Source: an uncultured Pelagibacteraceae bacterium
GTDB lineage: Bacteria; Pseudomonadota; Alphaproteobacteria; Pelagibacterales; Pelagibacteraceae
Length of the DNA: 64,000 bases
Direction of reading: 5' to 3'
Assembly: GCA_902634455.1 (NCBI GenBank)
Contig: CACPKQ010000001.1
Span: forward strand, 62,001 to 126,000
The notes beneath the pieces are model-generated. The model had not been told where the DNA came from. It saw only the letters and a list, made by a program, of their open reading frames with translations, and searched no databases. The position numbers and the translations under genes are program-made. Shown in pieces: positions 47,058 to 51,309 of this stretch; the stretch's first letter is position 1, and every line of letters starts with the position of its first letter.

Positions 47058-48062
47058 ATGAATATAGCAATAGTAGGAGCAACAGGAAATGTTGGAAGGA
47101 AAATTATAGAAGTTTTAGAAAAAAAAAATTTTCCCGTAGATGAGATACATTTCGTTGCATCTTCGAAAAGTGCAGGAAAAAAATTAAAATTTAAAGGAAA
47201 AGATATTGTTGTTGAAAATTTAGAAACTTTTGATTTTTCAAAAGGTAAAATTACTTTTTTTTCAGCAGGAGGAAAAATTTCAGAAAAATATGCTCCTATA
47301 GCTGCTAAACATTCAATAGTTATAGATAATTCAAGCCACTTTAGAATGGATCCAAATGTTCCTCTAATTGTGCCTCAAGTTAATTCAAAAGATTTAAATA
47401 GTGTAAAAAAAAATATAATTGCTAACCCAAATTGTTCAACTGCACAACTTGTTATAGTTTTAAAACCTTTGCATGATTTATTTAAAATAAAAAGAGTTGT
47501 GATTTCAACATACCAATCAACATCTGGAGCTGGAAAAGCTCCAATGGATGAATTGCTAGAACAAACAAAACTTTCATTAGAAAATAAAAAAATAAATTCT
47601 AAACATTTTACAAAACAAATTGCTTTTAATGCAATTCCTCATATAGATCAATTTGTAGATGAGGGGTACACCAAAGAAGAATTAAAAATGATTAATGAAA
47701 CTAAAAAGATTCTAGATAACAAAATAGAATTAACAGCAACATGCGTAAGAATTCCAGTTATGGTTTCTCATTCTGAGTCTTTAAATATAGAATTTGAAAA
47801 ACCATTTAATTTAGAAAAAATCCGTGAAGCTTTAAATAATGCAGATGGATGTAAAGTTATTGATGAGAGAAAAGATGGTGGATATATTACTCCTGTTGAA
47901 GCTGAAGGTAAAAATGAAACTTTTATTTCTAGAATTAGAAATGATCCTAGTAAAAAAAGTACACTTAATCTATGGTGTGTATCAGATAACTTGCTAAGAG
48001 GTGCGGCCTTGAATGCTGTAGAAATAGCGGAAGCATATTTAAAAACAAATAATGAAAGATAA
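47058..48062 (+). CDS. asd: Aspartate-semialdehyde dehydrogenase
   Basis: Asd reduces aspartyl phosphate to aspartate semialdehyde for lysine, threonine and methionine synthesis. The 334-residue protein has the NADP-binding VGATGNVGRKIIEVL, catalytic Cys in NPNCSTAQLV, STYQSTSGAGKAPMDEL, and the active-site His in RIPVMVSHSESLNIEF. Its end overlaps the sdhC start by 11 bases. Confidence 0.97.
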   Translation: MNIAIVGATGNVGRKIIEVLEKKNFPVDEIHFVASSKSAGKKLKFKGKDIVVENLETFDFSKGKITFFSAGGKISEKYAPIAAKHSIVIDNSSHFRMDPNVPLIVPQVNSKDLNSVKKNIIANPNCSTAQLVIVLKPLHDLFKIKRVVISTYQSTSGAGKAPMDELLEQTKLSLENKKINSKHFTKQIAFNAIPHIDQFVDEGYTKEELKMINETKKILDNKIELTATCVRIPVMVSHSESLNIEFEKPFNLEKIREALNNADGCKVIDERKDGGYITPVEAEGKNETFISRIRNDPSKKSTLNLWCVSDNLLRGAALNAVEIAEAYLKTNNER

Positions 48063-48435
48063 TAATCCTCTATCTCCACATATTCAAATTTATAACTGGC
48101 ACATATCATCTCTTGTTTCAATTTCTCATCGGATTACAGGCGTAATTAATATAGTTTTATTAACTATAATATGTTTATGGATTGCTTCATTATTATTAGG
48201 AAAAACTAATTATGGGTTGATCCAAAACTTTTTAGATTCTTTTTTAGGTAAGTTTATAATTATTGGTACCGTTTGGTCATTTAGTTTTCAAATATTAAGT
48301 GAGATAAGACATTTATTTTGGGATATGGGCTATGGTTTTGATTTAAAAATATCTAAAATAACTGGATTGTTAGTAATTATTGGTTCATTTGTATTAACAA
48401 TATTAATTTATGTTATTGGAAGGCAAATAATCTAA
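48052..48435 (+). CDS. sdhC: Succinate dehydrogenase cytochrome b subunit SdhC
   Basis: A membrane anchor of complex II, 127 residues with three hydrophobic segments. PLSPHIQIYNWHISSLVSIS and HRITG are typical, and the quinone-site Ser23 and Arg27 (Ser27 and Arg31 in E. coli) are kept, as is IRHLFWDMGYG. However, the residue aligning with the heme b ligand His84 of E. coli is Gln80 (SFSFQILSEIRH), codon CAA at 48289-48291. See also SdhD. The protein is therefore named by homology although heme binding is doubtful. Confidence 0.93.
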   Translation: MKDNNPLSPHIQIYNWHISSLVSISHRITGVINIVLLTIICLWIASLLLGKTNYGLIQNFLDSFLGKFIIIGTVWSFSFQILSEIRHLFWDMGYGFDLKISKITGLLVIIGSFVLTILIYVIGRQII

Positions 48436-48764
48436 TGATGGTAGCAACAAAAAAATGGATATTTTTAAAAATTAGCTCAATAATTTTAACTCCACTATTG
48501 TTATGGTTTTCAATAAATTTAGTATTTATATATGATAAAGATTTTGTAGATATATTAGCATTTTTTACTTCACAACCATCAAAGTTGATCTTTTCAATTT
48601 TAATTGTTGTAGCTTATTTTTACTCAGCTTTAAGTATTAGTGAAATATTTGAGGATTATGTACATAATGAAAAAATTAAAAATGTCGCAAACAGACTTCT
48701 ATTTTTATTTGCTATAATAATGCCCATATTAACAATAACTATAATTTATAAATTAAGTTTATGA
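48435..48764 (+). CDS. sdhD: Succinate dehydrogenase membrane anchor SdhD
   Basis: The second membrane anchor of complex II, 109 residues with three hydrophobic segments (about 12-33, 51-70, 86-106). The quinone-site Asp74 and Tyr75 ([11 protein letters not shown]) align with Asp82 and Tyr83 of E. coli SdhD. The axial heme ligand His71 of E. coli, 11 residues before that Asp, is Tyr63 here (codon TAC, 48621-48623). The only histidine of the protein is His77. It overlaps sdhC by 1 base and sdhA by 4. Confidence 0.9.
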
Positions 48765-50536
48765 GATCATATAAAATAATTGATCATGAATATGATGTAA
48801 TTGTTTTGGGTGCAGGAGGATCAGGATTAAGAGCAGCAGTTGGACTAAGTGAAGCTGGTTTAAAAACCGCATGCATATCTAAAGTTTTTCCTACTAGAAG
48901 TCATACCTCCGCAGCACAAGGAGGAATTTCAGCTGCATTAGGAAACATGGGTCAAGATGATTGGCGTTGGCACATGTATGATACGGTTAAGGGATCTGAT
49001 TGGTTGGGCGATCAAGATTGTATAGAATATTTGTGTAAAGAGGCACCTAGAGCTGTTTTAGAACTTGAAAAATATGGAGTTCCTTTTAGTAGAACAAATG
49101 ATGGTAAAATTTACCAAAGACCTTTTGGTGGGATGACGAAAAATTACGGTAATGAGCCTGTACAAAGAACTTGTGCAGCTGCGGATAGAACAGGTCATGC
49201 AATACTTCACACTTTGTACGGCCAAGCTTTAAAACATAATACAGAATTTTTTATTGAATACTTTGCATTAGATTTATTGATGAAAAATGGAGAGTGCAAA
49301 GGTTTGATAGCTTGGAATCTAAATGATGGAACAATTCATAGATTTAGAGCTCATATTACAATTATTGCTACTGGAGGATATGGAAAGATTTATTATTCAG
49401 CTACATCAGCTCACACATGCACAGGTGATGGTAATGGTATGGTTTTAAGAGCTGGTCTGCCTTTACAAGATATGGAATTTGTACAATTTCATCCAACAGG
49501 AATTTATGGCCATGGAACTTTAATATCAGAAGGAGTTAGAGGTGAAGGAGGATTTTTAGTAAATTCAAATAATGAAAGATTTATGGAGCATTATGCTCCG
49601 AAAGCAAAAGATCTAGCATCTAGAGATGTGGTAAGCAGATCAATAGCAATTGAAATTAAAGAAGGAAGAGGAGTTGGCAAAGATAAAGATCACGTTCATC
49701 TTCATTTAGATCATCTAGATCCAAAAGTTATTGAAGAAAGATTGCCTGGTATTTCTGAGTCGTCTAAATTATTTGCTAATGTTGATGTAACAAAAGAACC
49801 TATACCTGTTGTACCGACTGTCCATTATAATATGGGAGGAATACCAACAAATTATAAAGCTGAGGTTCTTACAGTTAATGGTTCAGAAAAAACGGTTCCT
49901 GGATTGATGGCAATTGGTGAGGCTGCCTGTGTATCGGTACATGGCGCGAATAGACTTGGTTCTAATTCTTTAATTGATCTTGTAGTTTTTGGAAGGGCTG
50001 CAGCAAAAAGAGCTTCTGAACTTGTTAAAACTGGAACTCCACATGAAGAAATATCTAAAACAGAAACTGATAAATGTTTAGAAAGGTTTGATAGATTAAG
50101 AAATGGAAATGGAACAAATAAAACTGCAGATTTAAGATTAGCAATGCAAAAAACTATGCAATCTAAGTGTGCTGTATTCAGAACTGAAAAAACTTTAAAA
50201 GAAGGAGTTGAGGAAATAAGAAAACCTTTTGCAGGTATAGAATCCATATCAGTAAAAGATAAGTCTTTGATATTTAATACAGATTTGGTTGAAACATTAG
50301 AGTTTGATAATTTAATTAGACAAGCAATAACCACTATAGATTCAGCATATTATCGAAAAGAAAGTAGAGGTGCTCATGCTCGAGAAGATTTTCCAAAAAG
50401 GAATGATGAAAAATTTATGCAACATACATTATCTTGGTGCGAAGGATCTAAAACAAAGATAGAGTATAGACCAGTACAAAGATTGACTTTAACAAATGAG
50501 GTACAATATTTTCCGCCTCAAGAAAGAGTTTACTAA
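48761..50536 (+). CDS. sdhA: Succinate dehydrogenase flavoprotein subunit
   Basis: SdhA oxidises succinate to fumarate using covalently bound FAD. The 591-residue protein has the dinucleotide fold ([20 protein letters not shown]), the FAD-attachment His in [15 protein letters not shown], the substrate loop [20 protein letters not shown], and the catalytic Arg/His in SRDVVSRSI and [34 protein letters not shown] is conserved. It joins sdhB with a 1-base overlap. Confidence 0.98.
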
Positions 50537-51309
50537 TGGTTCAAATTAATTTACCTCAAAACTCAAAAATAATAAAAGGCAAATACTATAAGGATCAAAC
50601 AGGTTCAAAAAATATTAGAAAAGTTAATGTTTACAGATGGAATCCATCAACTGGCGAAAATCCTAGAATAGACACATATGAAGTTGATATGGATAATTGC
50701 CCTTCAAAAGTTTTAGATATACTTAACAAAATTAAAAATGAAATAGATCCTTCATTAGCTTATAGGAGATCTTGTTCTCATGGGGTTTGTGGATCTTGTG
50801 CAATGAATATGGATGGAAAAAATGGATTAGCATGTACAAAACCACATTCGGAAATTAAGGGTGATATTAATATTTATCCTTTACCACATTTAAAAGTTCT
50901 AAAAGATCTTATAGGTGATTTAAGTACTTTATATAAACAATATGAATCAATTGAACCATGGCTTAAAAGTTCAAAAAAAGATGATAGTAAAGAAAACATA
51001 CAATCAATAGAAGATAGAGAAAAATTAGATGGTCTTTATGAGTGTATAATGTGTGCCTGTTGCTCAACTTCATGCCCAAGTTATTGGTGGAATGGAGAAA
51101 AATACTTAGGTCCAGCAGTGTTGCTTCAAGCTTACCGTTGGATTGTTGATAGTAGAGATGAAGAAAAAAAAGAAAGACTAAAAAAAGTTGCTGATGAGCT
51201 AAAGTTATATAGATGTCATACTATTATGAATTGTACAAACGCATGTCCAAAAGATTTGAATCCTGCAAAAGCTATTGCAGAAATCAAAAAAATGTTGGTT
51301 ACAAGCTAA
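50536..51309 (+). CDS. sdhB: Succinate dehydrogenase iron-sulfur subunit
   Basis: SdhB carries the three iron-sulfur clusters that pass electrons to quinone. The 257-residue protein shows the [2Fe-2S] ligands in [18 protein letters not shown], and the [4Fe-4S]/[3Fe-4S] ligands in [17 protein letters not shown] and [18 protein letters not shown]. The quinone-site Pro and Trp residues (CPSYWW) and the His in CHTIMNC are kept. It is the last gene of a 15-kb same-strand array and converges on mmsA with a 7-base gap. Confidence 0.98.

What the first reader, a model, noticed from the sequence alone, without database searches (positions are those of the whole stretch)
48052..48764. SdhC and SdhD both lack the heme b ligands of complex II
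In E. coli complex II, heme b is held by SdhC His84 and SdhD His71. Here the aligned residues are Gln80 in SdhC (seven residues before the conserved RH pair) and Tyr63 in SdhD (eleven before the DY pair). The alignment is anchored by conserved motifs on both sides, and quinone-site residues (SdhC Ser23/Arg27, SdhD Asp74/Tyr75, SdhB Pro/Trp/Trp/His) are kept. SdhD has no other histidine except His77, beyond the membrane helix. This predicts a working succinate:quinone reductase without heme b, or with unusual ligation. It could be an iron-saving change in an ocean bacterium; that motive is inference.
Basis: partly seen in the sequence, partly recalled or inferred. Interest (0 to 1): 0.72.

Follow-up and report, generated by a model that had tools for sequence, protein, structure and literature searches.

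The report
Ocean bacterium's heme-less complex II
In the SAR11 ocean bacterium read here and most of its close relatives examined, the respiratory enzyme complex II has lost both histidines that normally hold its heme, and it is predicted to work without that heme, likely held together by a new charged pair in the heme's place.

Summary
SdhC Gln80 and SdhD Tyr63 sit where E. coli has the heme b ligands His84 and His71. The window lies in a SAR11 (Pelagibacteraceae) genus in which 52 of 56 genomes read lack both ligands. Relatives form a graded series: some sister genera keep both His, others mostly keep SdhC His only, and two of three genera read in the order's other family have SdhC Tyr with SdhD His. 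On the sdh tree one clade carries SdhD His71 loss, SdhC Gly88->Glu and SdhD Arg20->Lys together; inside it both ligand columns drift while quinone-site residues stay fixed. SdhD has no alternative conserved histidine. Ferrochelatase remains. Best reading: a quinone-reducing complex II without heme b, a heme propionate contact likely replaced by SdhC Glu84-SdhD Lys12, the mirror image of the Glu/Arg pair in heme-free yeast complex II (PMC13066397). Heme absence is predicted, not measured. Iron saving is weakly supported: genomes matching brackish/freshwater SAR11 keep the ligands, but so do two marine lineages seen here (SAR116; one of HIMB59's recalled size).

The parts
48052..48435 (+). sdhC, large membrane anchor subunit, 127 aa
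   Evidence: TIGR02970 119.6 bits over cut-off 52.3
48289..48291 (+). Gln80 codon at the column of heme ligand E. coli SdhC His84
   Evidence: alignment with E. coli SdhC; DNA
48301..48303 (+). Glu84 codon (E. coli Gly88): proposed stand-in for a heme propionate
   Evidence: Glu in 107 of 107 clade rows, Gly in 19 of 19 rows with both His; the contact is inferred
48435..48764 (+). sdhD, small membrane anchor subunit, 109 aa
   Evidence: TIGR02968 45.8 bits over cut-off 41.8; model pLDDT 93.3
48468..48470 (+). Lys12 codon (E. coli SdhD Arg20, a propionate contact): proposed partner of SdhC Glu84
   Evidence: Lys in 105, Arg in 2 of 107 clade rows; E. coli role from PMC3290573
48621..48623 (+). 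Tyr63 codon at the column of heme ligand E. coli SdhD His71
   Evidence: constant offset of 8 in the structural alignment
48633..48635 (+). Ser67 codon (E. coli SdhD Gly75), remodelled pocket
   Evidence: Ser/Thr/Asn in 107 of 107 clade rows, Gly in 32 of 32 other readable rows; but Ser in two of three g141 genomes that keep both His
48761..50536 (+). sdhA, flavoprotein subunit
   Evidence: TIGR01816 941.8 bits; RSHT motif kept
50536..51309 (+). sdhB, iron-sulfur subunit with all three cluster motifs
   Evidence: PRK05950 359.1 bits; motifs

Best explanation
The SdhC and SdhD subunits encoded here lack both histidines that hold heme b in E. coli complex II, and the enzyme is predicted to assemble and reduce ubiquinone without heme b. 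Shown: Gln80 and Tyr63 replace the two ligands; the window genus and sisters g8 and g9 share a remodelled pocket (SdhC Gly88->Glu, SdhD Arg20->Lys, SdhD Gly75->Ser/Thr, E. coli numbering) in one clade of the sdh tree; Fe-S and quinone-site residues are kept. Inferred: electrons go FAD -> three Fe-S clusters -> ubiquinone, as in E. coli, where heme is off the direct path. Inferred: the heme's job of tying SdhC to SdhD is taken over by direct contacts, above all SdhC Glu84 with SdhD Lys12 in place of the distal heme propionate, the pseudo-twofold mirror of the Sdh4 Glu112-Sdh3 Arg97 pair of heme-free yeast complex II. Inferred from the tree: the SdhD His was lost first, with the pocket change, and the SdhC His was then lost more than once.
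For: Ligand columns. One clade (124 rows, SH-aLRT 99) with SdhC Glu88; 124 rows: Gln/Phe 75, His/Phe 27, Gln/Tyr 17, Gln/His 2, His/Asn 1, Gln/Asn 1, Phe/Phe 1. Both ligand columns change 11 times inside the clade against once outside on similar branch length, while SdhC Ser23, Arg27, Asp91 and SdhD Asp74, Tyr75 change 0 times. No SdhD column is His in 30% or more of 107 clade rows. E. coli without heme b keeps roughly half the activity and grows on succinate (PMC3290573). Yeast complex II with Tyr at the SdhD column and His kept at the SdhC column shows no heme by cryo-EM, with Glu112 in place of a Gly replacing a propionate contact (PMC13066397). In E. coli, SdhD Arg20 and SdhC Arg31 hold the two propionates at pseudo-symmetric places.
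Against: No spectrum or structure. SdhC His26 (E. coli His30) is kept in 104 of 107 rows, and the title of a paper cited in PMC13066397 says E. coli axial-ligand mutants retain heme. Two distinct rows regain or keep SdhD His with Gln in SdhC, and three g1 genomes have SdhC His with SdhD Phe. Two of three g141 genomes have Ser at SdhD 75 with both His kept, so that change is not tied to loss. The Glu84-Lys12 contact was not modelled in a complex. One alphaproteobacterium (L315) has Glu at both columns with both His kept.
Confidence: 0.8

Rival explanations
1. Heme b is still bound but ligated differently, for example by SdhC His26 (E. coli His30) alone or with SdhD Tyr63.
For: His26 is kept in 104 of 107 clade rows; E. 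coli His30 lies about 3.5 A from the heme (PMC3290573); a cited title says E. coli axial-ligand mutants retain heme.
Against: His26 is also kept in all 33 rows outside the clade, so its conservation needs no new role; it is Thr in three clade rows; the ligand columns drift as if unconstrained; the heme-pocket glycines are filled by Glu and Ser/Thr; yeast with Tyr in SdhD has no heme.
Confidence: 0.15
2. Iron scarcity in the open ocean drove the loss, rather than relaxed need for heme in a streamlined genome. This concerns the cause, not the mechanism.
For: Genomes matching brackish/freshwater subclade III strains keep both His (PMC6018831, PMC10030771 passages); sister genera of the marine side lost one or both.
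Against: One event only; a SAR116 record and the genome of HIMB59's recalled size keep both His; one of ten irons saved per complex; partial losses elsewhere go with small genomes, 5 of 5 at 2.0 Mb or less.
Confidence: 0.25
3. Misalignment, pseudogene or assembly artefact.
For: SdhD finds no complex II chain in the PDB by single-sequence search, so its alignment needs support.
Against: A family profile aligns gap-free with E. coli SdhD; structural alignment with constant offset; the residues recur in many genomes and named single-cell genomes; frames are open.
Confidence: 0.01

Closest known systems
Saccharomyces cerevisiae complex II (heme-free, cryo-EM 9QDL/9QDM, PMC13066397)
   Same: Type-C-like anchor, Tyr at the SdhD ligand column, quinone site kept, a Glu at a Gly four residues after a ligand column.
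   Different: Yeast keeps the SdhC-type His and has the Glu in the SdhD-type subunit; here both His are gone and the Glu is in SdhC. Heme absence is measured only in yeast.
E. coli SdhCDAB and its heme-free laboratory variant (PMC3290573; Tran et al. 2007 cited there)
   Same: Same subunits, order and quinone-site residues; a heme-free form works.
   Different: Wild-type E. coli has both His, Gly88, Arg20, Gly75; the variant was made in the laboratory.
Tetrahymena and Perkinsus complex II (heme-less, named in PMC13066397)
   Same: Natural complex II without heme in the membrane domain.
   Different: Described there as divergent; not compared here.
E. coli fumarate reductase FrdABCD
   Same: Membrane complex II relative without heme (PMC3290573).
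   Different: A separate subfamily; the window proteins pass the SdhC/SdhD equivalog models.

Membership tests
Succinate:ubiquinone oxidoreductase (complex II), SdhCDAB | four subunits named by curated models | tested here: met
   all four above NCBIfam cut-offs
Succinate:ubiquinone oxidoreductase (complex II), SdhCDAB | three Fe-S cluster Cys motifs and quinone-site residues | tested here: met
Succinate:ubiquinone oxidoreductase (complex II), SdhCDAB | succinate:quinone activity | not testable with these tools
   no assay
Type C complex II (two anchor subunits, one bis-ligated heme B) | two three-helix anchor subunits of the SdhC/SdhD fold | tested here: met
Type C complex II (two anchor subunits, one bis-ligated heme B) | one His ligand from each anchor subunit | tested here: not met
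   Gln80 and Tyr63
Type C complex II (two anchor subunits, one bis-ligated heme B) | heme b present | not testable with these tools
   needs spectra or structure
Heme-free yeast-type complex II | Tyr at the SdhD ligand column | tested here: met
   Tyr63 in the window; Phe is commoner in the clade
Heme-free yeast-type complex II | Glu for Gly at SdhD column 75 (Sdh4 Glu112) | tested here: not met
   Ser67 here; the Glu is at the SdhC column 88 instead
Heme-free yeast-type complex II | heme absent in the structure | not testable with these tools
   no structure of the SAR11 enzyme

The most novel reading that the evidence does not exclude
Complex II sheds its heme by a repeatable, mirror-symmetric route: a Glu at the glycine four residues after one ligand reaches the arginine or lysine of the partner subunit and takes over from a heme propionate. 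Yeast did it through its SdhD-type subunit (Glu112-Arg97), SAR11 through SdhC (Glu84-Lys12), so the heme is a removable staple and much of the SAR11 group respires without it.
Probability: 0.4. Interest if true: 0.78.

Novelty: new variant of a known kind. Interest (0 to 1): 0.63.

Why it matters
What heme b does in complex II is an open question. A 2020 structure paper calls bis-His ligation conserved throughout all complex IIs (PMC7447783, passage). SAR11 offers a natural series (both His, one His, none) within one order that includes cultured strains, so heme's role in stability, rate and ROS could be tested by comparison. It also touches the iron budget of a dominant ocean heterotroph. In ten paper searches no listed title or abstract start reports this in SAR11; the library holds open-licence papers only.

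Tried and rejected
Rejected: misalignment or artefact. Rejected: SdhC His87 as ligand; it aligns with E. coli His91, a propionate contact, and is also kept in rows with both His. Not settled: SdhC His26 as ligand. Rejected: loss of heme supply; ferrochelatase matches in 40 of 41 genomes (39 over the family's cut-off), the window's own assembly included.

Led nowhere or weak: single-sequence PDB search with SdhD; independent-pairs test of the Glu signature (4 supported pairs, on average 1.8 for, 0 against, cannot reach significance); DNA-pattern counts (Gln pattern in 275 of 398 genomes of the family; His pattern in 103 of 398), which include chance hits and were used only to find exceptions (G197, G223, G568); SdhC structural ranges, which are not gap-free and do not place residue 80. 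COX1 was not found in the window's own 81%-complete assembly. Sdh_cyt was not found in 21 of 198 genomes of the order; not followed, most are incomplete. The alignment of G278 SdhD is unstable: the ligand column reads Val and Gly.

Row drops: L036 (SdhD cut), L270 and L271 were left out of the tree; identical sequences were merged (158 rows from 177 loci). Class survey: 80 of the 123 genomes outside the order with matches were read, the 30 strongest and mostly weaker ones, plus 22 picked mainly as weak matches or small genomes; L160 was dropped from the tests for a gap.

Full report
1. The genes. The window holds an sdhCDAB operon on the + strand, sdhC 48052-48435, sdhD 48435-48764, sdhA 48761-50536, sdhB 50536-51309, all four named by NCBIfam models above cut-off. 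It follows a semialdehyde dehydrogenase gene (47058-48062) and a GCV_T-domain gene that looks like dmdA (that name is recalled; Pfam). Only one pair of Sdh_cyt proteins is in the 1.09-Mb, 81%-complete assembly.

3. Who has it. In the window's order 104 genomes were read by genus code, SdhC/SdhD state. Window genus g1, 56 genomes: Gln/Phe 42, Gln/Tyr 10, Gln/His 1, His/Phe 3. g8, 18: His/Phe 13, Gln/Phe 5. g9, 3: His/Phe 1, Gln/Phe 2. g5 (2), g6 (2), g7 (4), g141 (3): His/His in each. Other family: g3, 2 His/His and 1 with SdhD cut off; g2 (10) and g4 (3): Tyr/His. The sample is not random: it holds best-scoring loci plus chosen ones. Contig lengths agree with LSUCC0530 (1.16 Mbp, closed, in PMC6018831) in g6 and, by lengths that I recall, with HTCC1062 and HTCC7211 in g1, IMCC9063 in g7 and HIMB114 in g5. 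So the ligand-less group would be the marine subclade I/II side, and the brackish and freshwater subclade III keeps both. The window's dmdA-like gene fits, as IIIa and LD12 genomes lack dmdA (PMC10030771, passage).

4. History. A quick ML tree of SdhC+SdhD+partial SdhA with ligand and pocket columns left out (158 rows, SH-aLRT only, 43 open forks) puts all 124 rows with SdhC Glu88 in one clade (99); the three g141 rows (His/His) join next to it (97). In the first version (107 such rows plus the window), SdhC 88 is Glu in 107 of 107 and Gly in 19 of 19 His/His rows; SdhD 75 is Ser/Thr/Asn in 107 of 107 and Gly in 32 of 32 other readable rows; SdhD 20 is Lys 105, Arg 2. Against a strict reading, two of three g141 genomes have Ser at SdhD 75 with both His kept. 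Inside the clade the minimum number of changes is 6 at SdhC 84 and 5 at SdhD 71; outside it is 1 at SdhC 84, and the SdhD loss lies at the stem. Branch lengths are 12.85 inside and 12.19 outside, so 11 of 12 changes inside gives p 0.0066 if changes are independent. Of 27 SdhC/SdhD columns that change at most once outside, four change five or more times inside: SdhC 72, 80, 88 and SdhD 63; two of the four are the ligand columns. SdhC Ser23, Arg27, Asp91 and SdhD Asp74, Tyr75 change 0 times; SdhC His26 changes twice and His87 once, inside. This is what loss of heme under a kept quinone reductase should look like.

5. No other ligand in sight. In 107 clade rows no SdhD column is His in 30% or more. 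SdhC has such columns at 10, 17, 26 and 87; 10, 26 and 87 are also His throughout the 33 rows outside the clade. His26 (E. coli His30) remains the one candidate for odd ligation; it is Thr in three clade rows.

6. How it would work. In E. coli, heme is off the path from FS3 to quinone; a heme-free variant is active and supports growth on succinate, and complete heme loss costs roughly half the activity (PMC3290573, passages and section 3). Its propionates are held by SdhD Arg20 with SdhC His91 and SdhB His207 (distal) and by SdhC Arg31 with SdhD Gln78 (proximal); Arg20 and Arg31 are equivalent along the pseudo-twofold axis. In yeast, where cryo-EM shows no heme, Sdh4 has Tyr108 at the ligand column, and Glu112, which replaces a Gly, bonds Sdh3 Arg97 in place of a propionate; two further pairs and one Tyr-His bond help (PMC13066397, passages and part of section 7). 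Glu112 is four residues after the ligand column. In SAR11 the Glu is four residues after the ligand column of SdhC, and the Arg20 equivalent is Lys12. By the same symmetry, Glu84 and Lys12 would stand in for the distal propionate. This contact is inferred; it was not modelled as a complex.

7. Beyond SAR11. Of 80 other alphaproteobacterial genomes read, 73 have both His, 3 are Tyr/His, 1 His/Tyr, 1 lost both (G278), 1 had SdhC cut and 1 gave no SdhC call. Of 22 more, picked mainly as weak or small, 20 have both His, one is Phe/His, one Tyr/His. Glu at column 88 or 75 is seen in 9 of 13 rows with a lost ligand (four of the nine are SAR11, one event) and in 1 of 100 rows with both His; on independent pairs this is not significant. 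Of the 80, the five read as lost are all 2.0 Mb or smaller, against 25 of 73 with both (p 0.007; biased sample).

8. Motive. Heme is still made as far as ferrochelatase shows: a match in 40 of 41 genomes, 39 over the cut-off, the window's own assembly included; a heme-copper oxidase gene in 38 of 41, not in the window's own incomplete assembly. Iron saving would spare one of ten irons per complex. Habitat fits loosely (section 3), but SAR116 record L247 and the genome of HIMB59's recalled length keep both His. Relaxed need for heme in a streamlined genome explains the data as well.

9. Literature. Seen as passages only: PMC4013037, PMC8879329, PMC5069961, PMC10030771, PMC6018831, PMC2864753, PMC7447783; passages plus sections: PMC3290573 and PMC13066397 (7, first part). 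The iron-limitation study of Pelagibacter (PMC2864753) does not use the words succinate dehydrogenase or sdh in its main text. Verdict: a real, clade-wide variant of complex II, probably heme-free, unmeasured.

Noticed in passing
G004, G009, G025, G030, G189, G197: In six genomes of the window's genus the COX1 match is clearly weaker (E about 1e-137 to 1e-140, open frame 573-627 aa) than in the others (E about 1e-164 to 1e-166, 543-548 aa), which suggests two kinds of terminal oxidase in one genus.
   Followed up: no
G370, G371, G374: Ferrochelatase in three genomes of the window's genus scores much lower (about 265 bits against about 362-377) and looks like a divergent form.
   Followed up: no
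L015, L017, L021, L023, L026, L064-L069, L153, L154: In genera g2 and g4 of the other SAR11 family SdhC has Tyr at the heme ligand column while SdhD keeps His: a separate, partial loss.
   Followed up: partly
L156 (G297), L157 (G343), L162 (G321), L319 (G657), L310 (G842): Other alphaproteobacteria with Tyr or Phe for the SdhC ligand carry Glu at SdhD column 75, the place of yeast Sdh4 Glu112.
   Followed up: partly
L144 (G350) and L300 (G681), same genus g129: One genome has SdhD Tyr at the ligand column, the other His, so the ligand varies within a genus.
   Followed up: no
L284 (G223), L286 (G568), L287 (G197); L152 (G110), L227: Exceptions inside the Glu88 clade: SdhC His with SdhD Phe, or SdhC Gln with SdhD His.
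   Followed up: partly
window 48052-48062: The sdhC start overlaps the end of the semialdehyde dehydrogenase gene by 11 bases; the sdhC/D, D/A and A/B borders overlap too.
   Followed up: no
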